Source: Natranaerobius thermophilus JW/NM-WN-LF
Lineage (GTDB): Bacteria; Bacillota; Natranaerobiia; Natranaerobiales; Natranaerobiaceae
Assembly (NCBI RefSeq): GCF_000020005.1
Contig: NC_010718.1
Coordinates: forward strand, 1,059,001-1,123,000
DNA: 64,000 nt
Reading direction: 5' to 3'
This document shows, one piece after another, positions 37,129-49,024 of the stretch (its first letter is position 1; each line of letters starts with the position of its first letter). The notes below the pieces were generated by a model. It ran no database searches and was not told where the DNA came from. It saw only the letters and a program-made list of their open reading frames with translations. The translations under genes were made by a program, and so were the position numbers.

Positions 37129-38220
37129 ATGACCATTCTTATTGAAAGACACTCGGATTCCGAATTGACCGTTAAATTCGATTATACTAAAGAGAGGGTT
37201 GAATTGTTAAATTAGTTTCCAGGAAGAAGATATGATCGCAATAGTAGATGTTGGTTTGTACCCAATACATCAAAAGCAATAAAAACGCTTAAACAATTAT
37301 TTGTAAAAGAGAAAATTATAGATGCTATCGAAGCTACAGACCAGCTTGACCTAAACCAAAAGAAGATAATGCGAGAATTTGAAAAAACCTTGAAATTAAA
37401 AGGTTATACTGAAAAAACTATAAAAGCTTATATAGGTCACATAAAACGTTTCTTGAAAGTGGGATTAAATATAAATAATAAAGAAGATATCCAATCTCAT
37501 ATAATTTTTCTTCTCGAAAATAATAATTCTCATTCCTATGTAAATCAAGCCATAAGTGCACTGAAGCTTTTAAATAATGAAATTACGAAAAAAGGTTATG
37601 TAGATGTTCATGGAATTAAAACTTGTGTGAATCAGCAAATAAAAGTTAATAGACCTAAAAAAGAAAGGAAATTACCAAATGTTTTGAGTCAGAAAGAAGT
37701 TTTAGAACTACTTACCGTAACAACTAATATTAAACACAAAGCTATTTTGTGCATAATTTATTCAAGTGGTCTCAGGGTTGGTGAAGCAGTCAGGTTAAAA
37801 CCAGAAGATTTAGATGGAGAGCAAAAAATAATTCATATAAAACAAGGAAAAGGAAGGAAGGACCGTTATACTATTTTATCGGATAATGCTCTAAAAATAT
37901 TAAGAAATTACTATAAAATTTATCAACCTAAGAAATGGCTTTTTCCTGGACAAAATGAAAATCTGCATTTGAGCGAAAGATCAGTTCAAAAGATATTTCA
38001 AAAAGCTAAGCAGAAAGCTAATATAAATAAAAAAGTATCAGTTCATTCTTTGAGACATTCGTTTGCGACTCATTTACTAGAAGCTGGAACTGATTTAAGG
38101 TATATTCAAAAACTGCTAGGTCATGAAAGTTCTAAAACTACTGAAATTTACACACATATTACGACTCAAAATATTTCAAGAATTGAAAGCCCACTAGACA
38201 AGTTAATGGAGGAAATATAG
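37129..38220 (+). CDS. Tyrosine recombinase of the cassette array, with in-frame TAG at codon 29
   Basis: From ATG 37129 (AGAGGAGA upstream) the frame is open to 38220 except for TAG at 37213-37215. The N-terminal extension carries FPGRRYDRNSRCWFVP, seen in IntI/Xer-like recombinases; from ATG 37369 a 283-residue core has all catalytic residues: Arg136 (SSGLRVGEA), Lys161 (GKGRKD), His226-x-x-Arg229, His252 and Tyr261. The end IESPLDKL resembles the SPLD tail of integron integrases, but the IntI-specific insert before the HxxR box is absent. It lies directly before the repeat array and is its obvious recombinase candidate. Confidence 0.85.
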
Positions 38221-39160: not shown

Positions 39161-39249
39161 TGTTACACCTCCAAACTTGTAGGTTATTATATTATTATTT
39201 CAATAACATTCTGTTAATATCCTTTAATACATTTAAGGTTTGCCCGACC

Positions 39250-39437
39250 TCACATAACACGATTGTTTGCGTTGCTCCTTGCAGTCGCACCCTCCGGGAC
39301 ATTGCCTTTTGTCACGACTTTTGCAGTTAGCGGTTGAGGTAGTATGGCAGCAAAAGTCGTGCCAAACCCCTTAGTATTTTGTTTGGGCTTGTTATGCCGG
39401 GGCCGGCAACGTCGCAAACAACGGGAACGTTATATGA
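39250..39437 (+). repeat. attC-like site A
   Basis: Left end TCACATAAC, core AACACGATTGTTTGCG, right arm CGCAAACAACGGGAAC and right end GTTATATGA. Inside, CACGACTTTTGC pairs perfectly with GCAAAAGTCGTG, and CCAAAC with GTTTGG. About 150 bp are identical to site B. Confidence 0.8.
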
Positions 39438-39511
39438 AATACCTCGCTAGTAATTTGGGATGTTATTCCAAAGCATTCAATGATATAATAGATTTGACAG
39501 GAGGTGTTGTT

Positions 39512-39757
39512 ATGCAATGGTCTGAAGTAAGAAAGCAATACCCTAATAAATTTGTTAAGTTTGAAGTGCTAGATTATCATACTGATGATAATAAAAGGGT
39601 TGTAGATGAAGTTTCAATAATTAAAGTGATTGAAGACTCAAAAGAAGCAATGCAAGAGTTTTCTAAATGTAAAGAAGGCCAATTTGTTTACAATACAAAA
39701 CATGAAAAGGTAATTATAGACGTAGTAAAACATATAGGAATTCGGAGGACTTCATAA
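39512..39757 (+). CDS. Small conserved partner of a retropepsin-like protease (copy 1)
   Basis: ATG 39512 follows CAGGAGGTG; a longer frame running back through site A to 39344 has no ribosome site. The 81-residue protein starts MQWSEVRKQYPNKFVKFEVL and looks like a small alpha/beta domain. I cannot name a family. Copy 2 at 45179 and a broken copy at 46080 share the WxEVRKxYPxxxVKxEIL start. It ends 2 bp before the protease gene. Confidence 0.75.
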   Translation: MQWSEVRKQYPNKFVKFEVLDYHTDDNKRVVDEVSIIKVIEDSKEAMQEFSKCKEGQFVYNTKHEKVIIDVVKHIGIRRTS

Positions 39758-39759
39758 CA

Positions 39760-40146
39760 ATGTATAATTTACGGTTTGAAAATGGGTTGTTATATGCTGA
39801 CGCTACGATCTATCATGAGAAAAAAGAAATTACAATACCTGATGTAATAATTGATACTGGTTCAAGTCACACAATAATCTTGACAGACTTTTTATATGAC
39901 TTGGATATTGGATTTGATGACTCTGATGAATTAGTTGTGATGTCTGGCATAGGAGGAGCAGAGTCCCCTGCAGTGAGAAAACAAATTAATAGTATTTCTA
40001 TAGGCGATATTTCCGTAGAAAATTTGAAGACAGATTTTGGAGTGATAGATCCAAAAGGTAGTATTAATGGGCTTGTAGGAATGGATTTTCTGATACTAGG
40101 AAAAGTAACTATTGATACATACAATATGACCCTAAATGTGAGATGA
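39760..40146 (+). CDS. Retropepsin-like aspartic protease (copy 1)
   Basis: The 128-residue protein has the active-site motif IIDTGSSHTIIL (about 29-40) and a GLVGMDFLI second half, the single-lobe clan AA pattern that works as a homodimer. There is no membrane segment, so it is cytosolic. Together with the 81-residue protein it fills one cassette. A function in regulated cleavage of the partner or a toxin-antitoxin role is inference only. Confidence 0.82.
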   Translation: MYNLRFENGLLYADATIYHEKKEITIPDVIIDTGSSHTIILTDFLYDLDIGFDDSDELVVMSGIGGAESPAVRKQINSISIGDISVENLKTDFGVIDPKGSINGLVGMDFLILGKVTIDTYNMTLNVR

Positions 40147-40158
40147 GGGTCTTTTTTT
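40128..40158 (+). terminator. Terminator overlapping the end of the protease gene
   Basis: GACCCT / AGGGTC stem around the stop codon followed by seven T. Confidence 0.65.
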
Positions 40159-40180
40159 ATAAGTTATAATGCTCGGTCCA

Positions 40181-40369
40181 TCAGCTAACACGATTGTTTG
40201 CGCTGCTCCCTTGCGGTCGCGCCCTTCGGGACATTGCCTTTTGTCACGACTTTTGCAGTTAGCGGTTGAGGTAGTATGGCAGCAAAAGTCGTGCCAAACC
40301 CCTTAGTATTTTGTTTGGGCTTGTTATGCCGGGGCCGGCAACGTCGCAAACAACGGGAACGTTAGCTGA
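40181..40369 (+). repeat. attC-like site B
   Basis: Left end TCAGCTAAC, right end GTTAGCTGA; body nearly identical to site A. Left end pairs with A right end at 7 of 9 bases. Confidence 0.8.
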
Positions 40370-40393
40370 CATTTTGCAAGTGCGTTGAAAAAG

Positions 40394-40423
40394 GAAAACA
40401 GTGGCTCAAGGGCCACTGTTTAA
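40394..40423 (-). terminator. Stem-loop terminator of the HigBA-like pair
   Basis: AAACAGTGGC / GCCACTGTTT stem; on the minus strand a TTTTCCTTTTTC tract follows. Confidence 0.6.
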
Positions 40424-40689
40424 TCAAATTTAATATGAAGATCTCTGTCGCAAGCTTTGGCTATTTTATATAAAAGCTCTATACTTGGATTGTAGCTTTC
40501 GTTTTCTAATCGGGAGATTGCAGATTGTTTTGTTCCTATTTTTTCAGCTAATTCTTTTTGACTTAAACCTTTTTCCTTGCGAAGCTTAATAACTTGTCGT
40601 TTGATATCATAAAGGACTTCTAAGTTATCATATTCTTTTTTAACATTAGGGTTGTTAAATAGTTTTTCTTTAACTTTCTTATGGTTCAT
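40420..40689 (-). CDS. HTH antitoxin (HigA/XRE-like)
   Basis: The 89-residue protein carries an XRE helix-turn-helix (LRKEKGLSQKELAEKIGTKQSAISRLENESYNPS, about 42-75). GAGGTGAT precedes ATG 40689. It is the second gene after a RelE/HigB-like toxin, the usual HigBA order. The antitoxin frame is intact. Confidence 0.85.
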   Translation of the reverse strand: MNHKKVKEKLFNNPNVKKEYDNLEVLYDIKRQVIKLRKEKGLSQKELAEKIGTKQSAISRLENESYNPSIELLYKIAKACDRDLHIKFD

Positions 40690-41031
40690 AATTATCACCT
40701 CTTTCAAGATACTTTTTTAACCTTTTTAAAGCCATATTCAAATCTTTTTTAGGGGTTTTGTTATCTTTCTTTTGAAAACCGTGGAGTAAAACAAAGGTAT
40801 TATTATAATCTTTGAAAAGTATTCGAAATATGTTAGAACTATGTTTGATCCTTAATTCCCAAAGTTCTGTATTTTTAATTTTACGAATATGTGGCATCCC
40901 TAGAGAAAGTCCAAATTCTTCAAGAAGATCAATTTCTCGTAATATTTGGCCTGTTCTTTAGCGTATTGTTTTAAGATAAAGTTTACAACAGGTGATTCAT
41001 TATATTCTTCAAAATATATTATTTCATACAT
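40679..41031 (-). pseudogene. RelE/HigB-like toxin, frameshifted
   Basis: From ATG 41031 (AGGTG upstream) the frame reads MYEIIYFEEYNESPVVNFIL... then leaves register near 40937. After one missing base it resumes as ILREIDLLEEFGLSLGMPHIRKIK and runs to 40679 with the RelE strands LWELRIKHSSNIFRILF and LLHGFQKK. One deleted A in an A-run explains it. An internal ATG at 40897 would give only the C-terminal part. Confidence 0.75.
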
Positions 41032-41111
41032 GACTTCACCTCACACCTGTTAGTAATAAAATTATATCACATATATGTTATATAAACAATAAATTAAAAG
41101 AAATGCAAAAC

Positions 41112-41120
41112 GTCAGATAA
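41112..41120 (+). repeat. Left end of site C, cut off by the IS110 insertion
   Basis: GTCAGATAA matches the left end of a site (compare TCAGATAAC at site J) and 8 of 9 bases of the B right-end complement. The rest of the site continues at 42724 on the other side of the element. Confidence 0.55.
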
Positions 41121-41261
41121 ACCAGCTAATATTTGTCAAGGTTTTATTAATAATTTATCAATATAAGAAAATAATCCATGCCAAATAAACCTACCCAGCA
41201 AGTAAGTTTTTTTAGTGTAATACTGCTCTTTCAAAATAGATTCAAATAGAGTAATATTGTA

Positions 41262-42470
41262 TCAAGAGGTCGAGAAAATGGTTCTACTCTTCAACATGCC
41301 ATAAATTATTCTTAATAGCTTGTTAGAAGCTGCAATAATTGCAACATTAGGCGCCTTACCCTCGGAAAGCTTTTTAGAATAGAACTCAAATATCACGGGG
41401 TTTACAGGCTTTCCTTTTCTCTTTCTAATACCTGCAACAGTAGCCTGATAAAGAGCTTTTCTAAGATGATTCGATCCTCTTTTAGATATCTTGTTTTTAG
41501 TAGCCTTAAACCTTCCTGACTGAAAAACGCTGGGATCTAGTCCTGAAAAAGCGACTAGTTGTTTAACAGTAGGGAAGTTAAGGACGTCACCGATTTCAGA
41601 AAGAATGGTGGCAGCTGTCACTTCTCCTACCCCTGGGATGGAGAGGAGGAGCTCAAATTGAGGTGAAAGCCTAGCAAGCTTAACCATTCGATCCCGCATA
41701 CGGGTCAAATTGTCTCTTAAGTTATTGAGGATAGAAATATAATCCTTGATAGCTTCTTCAAAAGGCCCTTGGGACAGGTTAACAGATAGGCTTTCTCTGG
41801 CAGCATTGTAAAGCATGTCCACCTTATCTTGGTACCACTTTTTAGGCATGTTAGCCAATTTCAAAGCTTTGATTATCTCTTCTCTAGAAGCTTCAAGTAC
41901 AGCATTTGGAGAAGGGAAATGATAAAGTACATTTAGAGAAGTTTTAGAACAAAAATCAGAAAAAATCCCATTATACATAGGAAAGACCATTTCAACAAAG
42001 TCTCTAAATTTAAGCTGCGTTTCGCTAAACACCTCACAAATACCATCATACTGTCTACACATAGTTCGTAGATTTCTAGCCTGATCATCCATCCTAAACT
42101 GTAATTGATCTCCTTTAAGATAATAAACATTGGCAATTCTAACGACATCAATAGCATCAGTTTTAACCTTTCTTACAGCTTTATTTTTTTGTAAGTGGGT
42201 TTCAATGGGATTCAATGATATAACTTTAAATCCATTAGTTTCAAAAAAACTGACAATAGGGGTGGAGTAGTTTCCGGTGGCCTCTAGAACAACTTTAGCT
42301 TTAGAACCAGTTTCTATTTCAGTAGACTTAAGGATCTCCAAAACTTCAGATAACTCCTTATGGGTGTGCTTAAAGGTGAAGGTTTTGTCTTTCAAATTAC
42401 CTTGAGAAAGAAACAGAGCAGCAGTACTATTTTCTTTTGAAACATCGATACTTAGTACAGGATCAGTCAT
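41262..42470 (-). CDS. IS110-family DEDD transposase/recombinase
   Basis: The 402-residue protein starts at ATG 42470 (AAAGGAGGAG upstream; the frame is open further upstream). It has the RuvC-like half with IDVSKENS, LEATGNY and KTDAIDVVRIA, and the C-terminal half with IPGVGEVTAATILSEIGD, AFSGLDPSVFQSG and the Ser region SKRGSNHLRKALY. It should act with a bridge RNA made from the element end. The protein looks complete. Confidence 0.92.
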   Translation of the reverse strand: MTDPVLSIDVSKENSTAALFLSQGNLKDKTFTFKHTHKELSEVLEILKSTEIETGSKAKVVLEATGNYSTPIVSFFETNGFKVISLNPIETHLQKNKAVRKVKTDAIDVVRIANVYYLKGDQLQFRMDDQARNLRTMCRQYDGICEVFSETQLKFRDFVEMVFPMYNGIFSDFCSKTSLNVLYHFPSPNAVLEASREEIIKALKLANMPKKWYQDKVDMLYNAARESLSVNLSQGPFEEAIKDYISILNNLRDNLTRMRDRMVKLARLSPQFELLLSIPGVGEVTAATILSEIGDVLNFPTVKQLVAFSGLDPSVFQSGRFKATKNKISKRGSNHLRKALYQATVAGIRKRKGKPVNPVIFEFYSKKLSEGKAPNVAIIAASNKLLRIIYGMLKSRTIFSTS

Positions 42471-42479
42471 AGAACTCCT

Positions 42480-42715
42480 CCTTTGTATTTGGGGGACCGA
42501 AGCTTTCCATCCTTCACAAGTTCGCTCGGTGATGCGGGTTAAAATACCCAACCAGCTTAATCGGGATATGGATGTAAGCTTAGGCTTGGACACTTTATTC
42601 GACGGGATCTAGTCCCAACACGATTGACGTCCTTCACCCCAGGGCTTTCTTAAGTATAGACTTTTTAGAAAAAATAAAAAAGGTTCATAGCCCAGACTAA
42701 GCTGGTTATGAACCA
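42480..42715 (-). ncRNA. Candidate bridge RNA region of the IS110 element
   Basis: The non-coding stretch upstream of the transposase starts with a hairpin (GGTTCATA 42682-42689 / TATGAACC 42707-42714) and then holds several short stems. At 42617-42626 it contains AACACGATTG, identical to the core of the site into which the element is inserted (42724-42733). That is what a target-guide segment of a bridge RNA would look like. RNA ends are not determined. Confidence 0.45.
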
Positions 42716-42723
42716 ATAATACG

Positions 42724-42888
42724 AACACGATTGTTTGCGCTGCACTTCCTGCGGTCGCTTGCCCTTTGGGACATGCCCTCTGTCACGGAGGTTGCAATAA
42801 GTGAGTAGAATTAATGGAGGGGCAACCTCCGCGCCAGGCCGACTGTTGTCGGCCCGGGCACGTTGCAAACAACGGGAACGTTATCTGA
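42724..42888 (+). repeat. attC-like site C (right part), second subfamily
   Basis: Starts AACACGATTGTTTGCG, ends GTTATCTGA. The inner stem is GGAGGTTGC / GCAACCTCC instead of the A/B type, and the second hairpin is GGCCGAC / GTCGGCC. Confidence 0.75.
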
Positions 42889-43009
42889 AACATTGGGCAA
42901 AGCGTCTGCCCGCGTCCTGCGGGCAGTTGGGAAGACCTATTTGATGTAATGGTAAAAGTCATGAATTGATTTAACTACTAGAAAGGAAGAAAAGCAAGAG
43001 TTAAATGGG

Positions 43010-43258
43010 GTGATATTGATTTTTTCTCCTGGCGCAGGGAGCATTGGTTTTGATTTTATATCTTTTGTGTTACTTGTGATTGGAATTTCTTTAATAATTA
43101 AACCTAGATTGTCATTGCAATTGATAAAAGATAAAATTAATACTTTTGGTTTTTTAAATGTTTCTACTGAAACGACTGAAGTTCAGGTTATTACCATAGT
43201 AATAACAGGAATTATATTAATTTTACTAGGATTTCTTTATTTAGTTTCTTTTAGATAA
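43010..43258 (+). CDS. Small membrane protein, two helices
   Basis: The 82-residue protein has hydrophobic segments at about 16-30 and 60-80 and no family I recognise. The start may be GTG 43010 or TTG 43016; the ribosome site is weak. It is the only gene in the C-D cassette. Confidence 0.55.
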   Translation: MILIFSPGAGSIGFDFISFVLLVIGISLIIKPRLSLQLIKDKINTFGFLNVSTETTEVQVITIVITGIILILLGFLYLVSFR

Positions 43259-43328
43259 AGAAGGTAACGAAGATATCCAAGAAATTTATCAGCCTCCGCC
43301 GTCCATGGCTTTGGCTGGACCTATAGCA

Positions 43329-43486
43329 TCATATAACACGATTGACATTGCCTTTGTCACGTCTTTTGCAACCAAGAAAGCAAAAACTATGGGGGAGCAA
43401 AAGCCGTGCCAAGCTTCTTTGTAGAAGGATTAGGGTTAACATCTGATGGAGCCGGCATCGTCGCAAACAACGGGAACGTTAGACGA
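43329..43486 (+). repeat. attC-like site D
   Basis: Left end TCATATAAC, right end GTTAGACGA. About 35 bp of the left arm are missing after AACACGATTG. The right end is the exact complement of the left end of site E. Confidence 0.75.
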
Positions 43487-43560
43487 AAGACTAGTCAGTT
43501 TAGAATGTGGGTATAATATGTGGTAAAATATAGTAAACACTTTTAAAAGGAAGTGAGAAT

Positions 43561-43851
43561 ATGGACAAAAAGAAAATACTTATAACCCTTCAAAATAATA
43601 AAGACAAACTACAAAAACTTGGGGTAAGGAATATAGGTTTATTTGGGTCTTTTGTTAAAGAGCATCAGAAAGACAACAGCGACCTTGATTTTGTAGTTGA
43701 GTTTAAAAAAGGACAGAAAAATTATGATAACTATATAGAACTCAAGTTCTTTTTAGAAGAATTATTTGATAAAGAAATTGATTTAGTTACATCCGAATCA
43801 ATAAAACCTGAATTAAAGGCAGAGATAATGGAGAGTGTTGAATATGCGTGA
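43561..43851 (+). CDS. mntA: MNT-type nucleotidyltransferase antitoxin
   Basis: The 96-residue protein has IGLFGSFVKEHQKDNSDLDFVVE (GS-x-DxD) at about 24-46 and a third acid in EIDLVT. AAGGAAGTGAG precedes ATG 43561. It overlaps hepT by 8 bp. MntA-type enzymes AMPylate HepT. Confidence 0.88.
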   Translation: MDKKKILITLQNNKDKLQKLGVRNIGLFGSFVKEHQKDNSDLDFVVEFKKGQKNYDNYIELKFFLEELFDKEIDLVTSESIKPELKAEIMESVEYA

Positions 43852-44176
43852 CTACAGAGTTTATTTACAAGATATATTGAAATGTATTGAAAAAATAGAA
43901 AGCTATGTGAACAACATAACTTACAAAGCTTTTAGTTCAAACAATATGGTTCAAGATGCTGTGATTCGTAATTTAGAGATTATTGGGGAAGCTTCTAAAA
44001 GAATTCCAGAAGAAGTTAAGGAAAATGCTTCTCATATTGAGTGGAGAAAGATAGCTGGAATTAGAGATGTGTTAATTCATGACTACGCGGAGGTAGATTT
44101 AGAAATAGTATGGGATGTTGTACAGAACAAGTTACCGATTTTAAAAGATGGAATTAAAGATTTATTGAATAATTAG
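43844..44176 (+). CDS. hepT: HepT-type HEPN ribonuclease toxin
   Basis: The 110-residue protein has the active motif GIRDVLIHDYAEVD (R-x4-HxY) and the family stretch NLEIIGEASKRIPEEV. I start it at ATG 43844, inside the end of mntA. HepT cleaves RNA and is blocked by MntA. Both fill the D-E cassette. Confidence 0.88.
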   Translation: MRDYRVYLQDILKCIEKIESYVNNITYKAFSSNNMVQDAVIRNLEIIGEASKRIPEEVKENASHIEWRKIAGIRDVLIHDYAEVDLEIVWDVVQNKLPILKDGIKDLLNN

Positions 44177-44180
44177 TCCA

Positions 44181-44367
44181 TCGTCTAACACGTTTGTTTG
44201 CGCTAGCTCCTTTCAGTCGCGCCCTACGGGACATTGCCTTTGTCACGTCTTTTGCAATTAATTGGGTTAGGGTTTAAGTAGCAAAAGTCGCGCCAAACCC
44301 CTTGGTATTTGTTTGGGTTTGCTATGGCGGGTCCGGCAACGTCGCAAACAACGGGAACATTATATGC
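44181..44367 (+). repeat. attC-like site E
   Basis: Left end TCGTCTAAC, right end ATTATATGC (first G of GTT replaced by A). Core AACACGTTTGTTTGCG. Confidence 0.75.
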
Positions 44368-44437
44368 AATGCCGTGATTGAGTTCTTCAATGTGTGGTAA
44401 AATATTGGTAGAACAAATTAGAAGGTGCATATTTATT

Positions 44438-44911
44438 ATGGATGATAAAACCTTGAGTTAAAAAAGATATTTCATCAATAGAGTTTGAATTAAACCAGAT
44501 TGAAAAACACCTAAACTCGTATGAAACTTTAATTAAGAAAGCAAAAAATGGAAAACCGGATTTAATTGAGATGACAGCACTAGCTTCTGTTCTACATTCA
44601 TTTTATAACGGAATAGAGAATTTGTTTGTAGCTGTTGCAAAAAACATTGATAAATATGTACCCAAAAGTTCCAATTGGCACAAAGAGTTACTTAAACAAA
44701 TGTTAAAAGAAAATGAAGTTAGAGGACCTTTGATTTCAGAAGACTTGAGAAATAAATTAATTGAATATTTAGCATTTAGACATTTTTATCGCATTCATAT
44801 TCTTTTTATCTTGATTAGGAAGAATTAGAAAGCTTAGTAGTGTCACTCAATGATACATGGGAACAAGTAAAAAAAGAAATGACGGAATTTATAAGTGAAC
44901 AAAATACATAA
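44438..44911 (+). pseudogene. HEPN-type toxin gene broken by two frameshifts
   Basis: ATG 44438 starts MDDKTLS then stops. The next frame reads KDISSIEFELNQIEKHL to LAFRHFYRIHILFI (the R-x4-6-H region), and a third frame ends EELESLVVSLNDTWEQVKKEM at 44911. Together they make a normal HepT-like helical protein of about 155 residues. No MNT partner is in this cassette. Confidence 0.65.
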
Positions 44912-44918
44912 TGGCACA

Positions 44919-45090
44919 GCATATAACACGATTGTTTACGCTGCACTCCCTGCTTTCGTTTGCCCTTTGGGACATGCCCTTCTGTTACGGAGGTTGCAGT
45001 TGATGAGTAGAATTAATGGAGGAGCAACCTCCGCACCAGGCCGACTGTGGTTGGCTCGGGCACGTCGCAAACAACGGGAGCGTTATCTGA
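44919..45090 (+). repeat. attC-like site F, second subfamily
   Basis: Left end GCATATAAC, right end GTTATCTGA; inner stem GGAGGTTGC / GCAACCTCC as in sites C and H. Confidence 0.75.
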
Positions 45091-45178
45091 AATGCTCAGT
45101 ATGGTTATTTAAGCATATAGGAATGAGCCACGATTGTTGATATAATATGGTCAAAAGATCACCAGGGGAGTGATAAGA

Positions 45179-45427
45179 ATGAAGTGGGATGAAGTAAGAA
45201 AGCTTTATCCAGGTCAATTTGTTAAGGTAGAAATTTTAGAGTCTGAAATAAGAGGAAATAAAAAATATGTTACTGATGTGGCTGTTATAAAACCTATTAG
45301 TGATAAAAAAGAGGCAACTCAAGAACTTATAAACTCAAAGGGAGACACTGTAGTTTATCATACTGACAATGAAGAAATTGTCTTGGAGATAAAGAATATT
45401 AAAGGATATAGAGGTATAGTTCAATGA
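45179..45427 (+). CDS. Small conserved partner of a retropepsin-like protease (copy 2)
   Basis: ATG 45179 follows AGGGGAGTG; a TATAAT box lies at 45141-45146, so the cassette has its own promoter. The 82-residue protein reads MKWDEVRKLYPGQFVKVEIL and then the alternating strand/helix pattern of copy 1. Its stop codon overlaps the next start (ATGA), so translation is coupled. Function unknown. Confidence 0.75.
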   Translation: MKWDEVRKLYPGQFVKVEILESEIRGNKKYVTDVAVIKPISDKKEATQELINSKGDTVVYHTDNEEIVLEIKNIKGYRGIVQ

Positions 45428-45804
45428 AGATAGAATATAGAGAAGGTTTATTGTTCACTAGTGTTGATTTAGTTTATCAAGGCAGGAGAAAAAAGATTAA
45501 TAATATAGTAATAGATACAGGAGCGTCTGAAACTATTATTTCTTCTGATATAGTAGAAGACTTGGATATTTTTGCAGATCCAAATGATAAAATAGTAAGT
45601 TATTATGGGGTTGGAGGATCAATACATAATGCTTTTGTTAAAACAATAGATGAAATAAAAATCGGGGAGTCCAAAATCAAGAAAGCTGAACTTGATTTTG
45701 GACTTATTGATATAAATGGTGAAATAAATGGGTTACTAGGGCTTGATATTTTGATAGATACAGAAGTTATTATTGATTTAAAAAATATGATACTTAAATT
45801 TTAG
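45424..45804 (+). CDS. Retropepsin-like aspartic protease (copy 2)
   Basis: The 126-residue protein has VIDTGASETIIS (about 30-41) and NGLLGLDILID, like copy 1 but clearly diverged. Overlap of 4 bp with the partner gene supports a functional pair. Confidence 0.83.
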   Translation: MKIEYREGLLFTSVDLVYQGRRKKINNIVIDTGASETIISSDIVEDLDIFADPNDKIVSYYGVGGSIHNAFVKTIDEIKIGESKIKKAELDFGLIDINGEINGLLGLDILIDTEVIIDLKNMILKF

Positions 45805-45822
45805 TAATAAATGTTTAGTCCT

Positions 45823-45994
45823 TCGTCTAACACGATTGTTTGCGCTGCTCCCTTTTCCCGCCTTCGGAAATTATCTTTTGTCACGACTTTTGCAGTTAGA
45901 GGTTAAAGTTAGTAAGTAGCAAAAGTCGCGCCAATCCCCTTGTATCTTGTATGTCGGGCTCGGCAACGTCGCAAACAACGGGAACGTTATCTGA
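45823..45994 (+). repeat. attC-like site G
   Basis: Left end TCGTCTAAC, right end GTTATCTGA; inner stem CACGACTTTTGC / GCAAAAGTCGCG, A/B subfamily, with the left arm shortened. Confidence 0.75.
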
Positions 45995-46079
45995 AATGCT
46001 AAGTGTGGTTATTTCAGCAATATATGAGTGCCCCCCGATTGTAGATATAATAAGAAAGATCACTAGGAGAGTGATAAGA

Positions 46080-46175
46080 ATGAAGTGGGATGAAGTAAGA
46101 AAGCTTTATCCAGGTCTATATGTAAAGTTAGAAATTCTAGAGGAGTGTAATGATGAGAAAAAGAATTACTTCTAA
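46080..46175 (+). pseudogene. Truncated third copy of the protease partner gene
   Basis: The first 31 codons (MKWDEVRKLYPGLYVKLEILE...) and the upstream promoter/ribosome-site segment match copy 2 almost exactly, then the frame ends. No protease gene follows before site H. It marks a decayed cassette. Confidence 0.65.
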
Positions 46176-46296
46176 GTTTAAGTTTGTACTACAAAATAAG
46201 GTGACTATAATAAAGTTTATTTGATTTTTGATATTAGATATAAGGGGAATATACGACAAAAAATAAGCTTCGTCGTTTATGATTCCGCCTATTGCA

Positions 46297-46464
46297 TCAT
46301 CTAACACGCTTGTTTACACAGCTCCCTGACGGTCGCGCACTAAGGGACATGCCCTTCTGTCACGGAGGTTGCAGCTAGTGGATAGAATAAATGGAGGGGC
46401 AACCTCCGCGCCAGGCCGACTGAGTCGGCCCGGGTATGTTGCAAACAACGGGAACGTTAGGCGA
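46297..46464 (+). repeat. attC-like site H, second subfamily
   Basis: Left end TCATCTAAC, right end GTTAGGCGA, the closest here to the canonical integron GTTRRRY end. Stem GGAGGTTGC / GCAACCTCC. Confidence 0.75.
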
Positions 46465-46494
46465 CATATAACTCAATAAGGAGGGAGGATAGCT

Positions 46495-48875: not shown

Positions 48876-49024
48876 GCCCTACGGGGACATGCCTTCTGTC
48901 ACGCCTTTTGCAGTTATGGATAGAGTTTTTAAAGGGCAGAAGTCGCGCCAACCCCTTGGTATTTTGTTTGGGTTTGTTATGCCGGAGCCGGTAACGTCGC
49001 ATATAACGGGAACGTTATCACCTG
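48876..49024 (+). repeat. attC-like site I, left arm lost
   Basis: Begins within the body (GCCCTACGGGGACATGCC) and keeps the TTTTGC stem, CCAACCCC hairpin and right arm; right end GTTATCACCTGA. The rest of the 48712-49162 gap shows no gene. Confidence 0.65.

What the first reader, a model, noticed from the sequence alone, without database searches (positions are those of the whole stretch)
41112..42733. IS110 element inside an attC-like site, with a target-core copy in its non-coding end
The flanks join to a normal site start. The non-coding region upstream of the transposase contains AACACGATTG (42617-42626), the same ten bases as the target core at 42724-42733. IS110 elements use a bridge RNA whose loop matches the target, and some IS1111-group elements are known to target integron attC sites. 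This would be an independent RNA-guided attC targeting case.
Basis: partly seen in the sequence, partly recalled or inferred. Interest (0 to 1): 0.8.

Follow-up and report, generated by a model that had tools for sequence, protein, structure and literature searches.

The report
Jumping gene RNA-guided into integron sites
A bacterial jumping gene of the IS110 type carries a predicted guide RNA whose two target-reading stretches match the integron recombination site it sits in, and its relatives across Bacillota do the same with guides that change in step with their hosts' own integron sites.

Summary
A 1,603-bp IS110-type element (41121-42723, transposase on the minus strand) sits in the R-box of one site in an eight-site attC-like array, with a shared AA/TT core. 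The ten-base match is the left target guide of a predicted bridge RNA. I also found the right target guide, the donor guides and both guide-bearing loops, in the published IS110 order.

The decisive evidence is comparative. The transposase falls in a well-supported Bacillota clade (99/97). Of 25 insertions examined in it, 24 end at a GTT R-box and 20 of those show an attC-type paired arm and AAC box automatically. Left guides match their own flank at 6.06 of 7 variable positions, against 3.21 when guides are shuffled (0 of 100,000 as high). Right guides also track, more weakly. In its own genome YAACACGATTG occurs six times: five attC sites of this array and the guide itself. The sister Bacillus clade has the same RNA layout with other guides and targets.

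So an IS110-type lineage specialises on attC by bridge RNA, apparently independently of the known IS1111-attC group: a new variant of a known kind. The RNA itself and transposition are not shown.

The parts
41121..42723 (-). IS110-type insertion sequence (1,603 bp), left end (LE) at 42723, right end (RE) at 41121
   Evidence: Boundaries from the attC empty site and from conserved ends of relatives: LE CGTATTAT.., RE ..TTAGCTGGT
41262..42470 (-). DEDD transposase (RNA-guided recombinase), 402 aa
   Evidence: PF01548 6.7e-22, PF02371 2e-26; NF033542 'IS110 family RNA-guided transposase' 202 bits over cut-off 140; homologous to IS621 8wt6
41119..41120 (.). core dinucleotide AA (TT on the transposase strand), RE side
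   Evidence: shared by both flanks; empty site CGTCAGATAACACGATTG
42724..42725 (.). core dinucleotide AA, LE side
42471..42723 (-). non-coding LE region upstream of the transposase (253 bp) encoding the predicted bridge RNA
   Evidence: conserved architecture in relatives
42617..42626 (-). left target guide (RNA CAAUCGUGUU), 10/10 to left target plus core at 42724-42733
   Evidence: covariation
42604..42616 (-). terminal hairpin of the target-binding loop GGGACUAGAUCCC
42595..42603 (-). right target guide (RNA GUCGAAUAA), 7/9 to the reverse complement of core plus right target (41112-41120)
42588..42632 (-). target-binding loop with closing stem GGACG/GUGUCC
   Evidence: compensatory changes across 19 sequences
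42550..42557 (-). left donor guide AGCUGGUU, matches the RE end AGCTGGT plus core T
42536..42549 (-). terminal hairpin of the donor-binding loop GGGUAUUUUAACCC
42521..42524 (-). right donor guide CGAA, complementary to core TT plus LE start CG; is CCAA in relatives whose LE starts GG
41108..41120 (+). outer half of the interrupted attC-like site (R-box side, GTCAGATAA)
42724..42891 (+). rest of the interrupted attC-like site (AACACGATTGTTTGC ... GCAAACAACGGGAACGTTATCTGA)
39249..46466 (+). array of eight attC-like sites starting at 39249, 40180, 41110/42724, 43328, 44180, 44918, 45822, 46296

Best explanation
This is an IS110-type insertion sequence whose non-coding left end encodes a bridge RNA aimed at the R-box end of attC-like integron cassette sites. 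The left target guide reads the host-lineage-specific bases between R-box and arm plus the core (CAATCGTG-TT). The right target guide reads the core plus the more general R-box motif (TTANNYGA). The donor loop reads the joined ends of the excised element (AGCTGGT-TT-CG). The transposase, guided by this RNA, would exchange strands at the TT core, placing the element inside the attC so that the cassette is likely frozen. Shown by sequence: ends, core, guides, loop positions, guide/target and donor covariation, clade-wide insertion at attC-like sites. Inferred: RNA production, circular intermediate, catalysis, effect on cassette recombination.
For: Ten-mer and array context. Second target guide and donor guides in the order expected from IS621 (order from PMC11208160). 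Conserved loop structure with compensatory stem changes: 13 double-changed cells against 2.8 shuffled, 96% of cells paired against at most 51% for slid partners. Guides match own flanks 6.06/7 against 3.21 permuted, 0/100,000; right guide 6.47/9 against 5.92, 59/100,000. 24 of 25 clade insertions end at a GTT R-box and the other is a tandem; 16 of 25 show an inverted arm of at least 8 bp plus AAC box (20 counting 7-bp arms), against 0 of 33 (strict rule) in the sister clade and 5 of 300 random places. Clade one group at 99/97. Genome-wide the motif YAACACGATTG occurs only in five attC sites of this array and in the guide. Right donor guide CGAA/CCAA follows LE start TTCG/TTGG. Joined ends would create TTGACA-17-TATTAT.
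Against: No experimental RNA or transposition data. The right guide of the window element has two mismatched positions (UC for CU). Single-sequence folding is only mildly more stable than shuffles (z -1.45) and pairs three bases of the two guides with each other. Rfam has no matching family. Only one copy in this genome, so recent activity is not shown. The right donor guide does not fully match in two relatives (L028, L038). Four clade sites (L031, L039, L051, L052) do not pass the automatic arm-plus-box test.
Confidence: 0.93

Rival explanations
1. The element belongs to the known IS1111-attC group (such as ISKpn4, ISPst6, ISPa21), so this is a known case.
For: Same kind of target, one end of attC sites; that group also uses a non-coding guide RNA (PMC11187229).
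Against: Non-coding region is upstream of the gene, not downstream; transposase 402 aa against 330-350; only a 7-bp shared end motif ACCAGCT instead of 11-13 bp subterminal repeats; the guide that matches the bottom strand comes first, the reverse of the IS1111 order; IS5075, an IS1111 member, lies on a very long separate branch.
Confidence: 0.03
2. The ten-base copy is a leftover of attC sequence picked up by the element, or chance, with no guide role.
For: The ten-mer is abundant in this array, so capture of a fragment is conceivable.
Against: Chance 5/20,000. At the homologous position relatives carry different sequences that match their own flanks, with a second guide and a conserved loop around it.
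Confidence: 0.02
3. The element was placed in the attC by the array's tyrosine recombinase, like a cassette.
For: It lies in an attC-like site of an array with an IntI-like recombinase gene nearby (37369-38220).
Against: The element has no attC of its own and its junction is at the AA/TT core inside the left R-box; ends and core are the same in all relatives; sister-clade elements with the same ends insert outside attC.
Confidence: 0.02

Closest known systems
IS621 and IS110-group bridge RNA elements (PMC11208160, PMC11208158)
   Same: DEDD/RuvC plus Tnp recombinase with the catalytic motifs, long LE with the RNA, target loop before donor loop, left guide pairs bottom strand and right guide top strand, core dinucleotide flanking both ends
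   Different: Transposase about 75 aa longer and distantly related; core TT instead of CT; right target guide is the long type; target is an attC R-box
IS1111-attC group: ISKpn4, ISPst6, ISPa25, ISPa21 (PMC11187229, PMC11616780)
   Same: RNA-guided insertion at one end of integron attC sites, suspected of freezing cassettes
   Different: Different branch of the family: RNA downstream of the gene, reversed guide order, 11-13 bp subterminal repeats, shorter transposase; in the papers read, known from integrons of Gram-negative bacteria
Sister IS110 clade in Bacillus and relatives (L054-L120)
   Same: Same ends (CGTATTAT / TTAGCTGGT), same loop layout, 33-41% identical transposase
   Different: Other guides (such as CTGCCCGT, CGCACCCGT, CGGGTGCGT) matching other recurrent targets, at least one of them palindromic; not attC

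Membership tests
IS110 group (IS110 family, bridge-RNA type) | DEDD RuvC domain plus Tnp domain with catalytic serine | tested here: met
   PF01548 and PF02371, NF033542 over cut-off; aligned to IS621, motifs IDVSK, LEATG, KTDAID and SGRFK present (catalytic residues from PMC11208158)
IS110 group (IS110 family, bridge-RNA type) | long non-coding region upstream of the transposase, short RE | tested here: met
   253 bp upstream, 141 bp downstream
IS110 group (IS110 family, bridge-RNA type) | two internal loops, target first, whose halves match bottom and top strands of target and donor | tested here: met
IS110 group (IS110 family, bridge-RNA type) | core dinucleotide shared by both flanks | tested here: met
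   AA/TT; AT at both ends in one relative, L089
IS110 group (IS110 family, bridge-RNA type) | circular intermediate with a junction promoter | tested here: inconclusive
   Joined ends give TTGACA-17-TATTAT; circle not observed
IS110 group (IS110 family, bridge-RNA type) | RNA bound by the transposase and needed for transposition | not testable with these tools
   needs experiment
IS1111-attC group | target is one end of attC sites | tested here: met
IS1111-attC group | non-coding RNA region downstream of tnp | tested here: not met
   it is upstream
IS1111-attC group | subterminal inverted repeats of 11-13 bp | tested here: not met
   only ACCAGCT shared
IS1111-attC group | transposase of the IS1111 branch (330-350 aa) | tested here: not met
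   402 aa; IS5075 far off in the tree; ISKpn4 itself was not at hand
attC recombination site | R-boxes RYYYAAC and GTTRRRY with paired inner arms, repeated along an array of cassettes | tested here: met
   eight sites in the window, with degenerate boxes in some; arms in relatives
attC recombination site | recombined by an integron integrase IntI | tested here: inconclusive
   No TIGR02249 match above cut-off in the own genome or 16 others searched; an IntI-like recombinase without the profile stretch 178-230 lies beside the array

The most novel reading that the evidence does not exclude
A whole IS110-type lineage has become a specialist of integron cassette sites in Bacillota, independently of the IS1111-attC group. 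It uses a two-part RNA key: one guide for the general R-box and one re-tuned to each host lineage's attC spacer. The arrays it tracks are run by a non-standard, IntI-like recombinase lacking part of the IntI profile.
Probability: 0.6. Interest if true: 0.75.

Novelty: new variant of a known kind. Interest (0 to 1): 0.65.

Why it matters
It is a natural series of IS110 guide RNAs retargeted to a changing target, with covariation visible on both target guides and on the donor guide. It indicates that both branches of the IS110/IS1111 family reached attC. The series gives ready-made guide and target pairs for testing reprogramming rules, and a way to ask whether such elements freeze integron cassettes in Bacillota, where I found little published on integron-like arrays.

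Tried and rejected
Rfam scan: no bridge-RNA family; best hit is an sRNA below its gathering score over the LE hairpin. Pattern scans with the window transposase alone in genome and viral collections found nothing; the alignment query did. IS1111-attC reference transposases could not be obtained: plasmid searches returned IS5075/IS4321 copies, and Tetu and Holmes 2008 is not held. One yardstick hit (ISEc20) turned out to lie on a Shigella plasmid beside effector genes; it was not used. The sister-clade guide test is weaker (4.75 against 3.26 of 7; 0 of 20,000) because some flanks carry one-base shifts that an ungapped comparison misses. In the tree the far outgroups have very long branches, so their placement is not relied on. 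A regular expression for the right donor guide caught few attC-clade rows; those pairs were read by eye.

Full report
WHAT IS THERE. The window lies in a 3,191,453-bp, three-contig Bacillota genome. The chromosome of 3,165,557 bp and that total agree, from memory, with Natranaerobius thermophilus JW/NM-WN-LF; the tools did not name it. At 39.2-46.5 kb there are eight attC-like sites, each with AACACG.TTG at its left R-box and GGGARCRTTANNYG at its right end, separated by small cassette genes. In the third site an element interrupts the left R-box. Left flank CGTCAGAT-AA and right flank AA-CACGATTGTTTGCGC join to a normal site start. The element is 41121-42723, with a core of AA (TT on the transposase strand) at both ends.

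THE TRANSPOSASE. The gene 41262-42470 (-) encodes 402 aa with both IS110 domains, passes the NCBIfam cut-off for 'IS110 family RNA-guided transposase' and aligns with the solved IS621 and ISCro4 transposases. Motifs IDVSK, LEATG, KTDAID and SGRFK correspond to the DEDD and serine catalytic positions described for IS621. The element is single-copy in this genome; the other IS110-like genes there are 24-27% identical.

THE GUIDE RNA. On the transposase strand the non-coding region reads GGACG-U-CAAUCGUGUU-GGGACUAGAUCCC-GUCGAAUAA-AGUGUCC, and further on AGCUGGUU-GGGUAUUUUAACCC-...GCGAA. The first unit is a closed internal loop. Its 5' side is identical to the left target plus core (10/10) and its 3' side matches the reverse complement of core plus right target at 7 of 9. 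The second unit has AGCUGGUU, identical to the RE end AGCTGGT plus the first T of the core, and CGAA, complementary to core plus LE start TTCG. This is the order and strand logic published for IS621. The ten-mer appeared in 5 of 20,000 shuffles of this region. In the whole genome YAACACGATTG occurs six times, all on one strand within 6.6 kb: five attC sites and the guide itself; the backward control pattern occurs once.

RELATIVES. Protein and profile searches gave relatives with the same ends and RNA layout. The tree joins 16 of them, including the window, in one group (99/97; 100% of 200 bootstrap trees). Of 25 insertion sites of this clade, 24 end at GTT of an R-box; the remaining one (L029, with L037) is a tandem insertion. 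Twenty of the 24 carry a paired arm and an AAC box automatically: 16 with an arm of at least 8 bp and four with a 7-bp arm. Four (L031, L039, L051, L052) do not pass automatically. With the strict rule (arm of at least 8 bp plus AAC box) the counts are 16/25 here, 0/33 in the sister clade and 5/300 at random places.

COVARIATION. With one row per guide (16 guides), left guides match their own flanks at 6.06 of 7 variable positions against 3.21 (sd 0.33) when permuted; none of 100,000 permutations reached it. Right guides match 6.47 of 9 against 5.92 (59 of 100,000 as high); the three most variable positions give 1.79 against 1.22 (10 of 100,000). The right guide is expected to be looser because R-boxes differ from cassette to cassette within a genome. 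The loop itself is supported by compensatory changes in the closing stem (GGAC/GUCC, GAAC/GUUC, UAAC/GUUA): 13 doubly changed cells against 2.8 in shuffles, 96% of cells paired against 26-51% for slid partners. The right donor guide changes from CGAA to CCAA in exactly the four Paenibacillaceae elements examined whose LE starts GG instead of CG (read); two other relatives (L028, L038) have an unmatched base there.

WHAT IT WORKS LIKE AND WHAT IT IS. It works like, and on all features testable here is, an IS110-group element with a bridge RNA. It is not an IS1111-attC element: the RNA region is upstream, the guide order is that of IS110, the shared end motif is only 7 bp and the transposase is longer. 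In the papers searched, attC targeting is reported only for the IS1111 branch, so attC targeting appears to have arisen at least twice. That independence is an inference, since ISKpn4-type transposases could not be placed in the tree.

LIKELY EFFECT. The insertion splits the R-box of the attC that would mobilise the cassette at 40420-40897 (an HTH antitoxin-like and Gp49/HigB-like pair by Pfam), so it probably fixes that cassette in place, as proposed for ISPa21 in class 1 integrons (PMC11616780). This is inference.

LIMITS. No RNA, circle or transposition is shown. The window's right guide carries a UC/CU mismatch. Single-sequence folding alone would not have been convincing (z -1.45). The literature library is open-access only, so prior description elsewhere cannot be excluded.

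Noticed in passing
37369-38220 (+): Tyrosine recombinase beside the array: best TIGR02249 (integron integrase) match in the genome but below cut-off and without profile stretch 178-230; best PDB match is Vibrio IntI4. Relatives at 43-56% identity occur in 12 of 16 genomes searched because they carry the attC-clade IS (one sister-clade genome included), several within a few kb of the IS copies. Possibly the integrase of a non-standard integron class in Bacillota.
   Followed up: partly
L054-L120 (Bacillus and relatives): Sister IS110 clade with the same ends and loop layout but guides for other recurrent targets, at least one of them a palindrome (such as TTATTCAACTAAACTGCCCAGTTTAGTTCAACAA, L056).
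   Followed up: partly
42675-42723 (-): Hairpin GGTTCATAACCAG...CTATGAACC followed by T runs at the very start of the LE in the transposase direction, then a conserved TATACT box before the guide loops; could be a terminator against read-through plus an internal promoter for the RNA.
   Followed up: no
L037 and L029 (same contig G012:C37): Tandem insertion: one copy's LE abuts another copy's RE (AGCTGGTT-CGTATAAT), the junction expected of an excised circle.
   Followed up: no
48880-49017: Lone degenerate attC-like remnant (AACGGGAACGTTATCACCTG) beyond the array, without a recognisable left R-box.
   Followed up: no
40420-40897, 43561-44176, 39760-40146, 45424-45804: Cassette cargo: HTH plus Gp49/HigB-like pair, nucleotidyltransferase/HepT pair, and two similar ORFs that look like retropepsin-type proteases (the last by eye only).
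   Followed up: no
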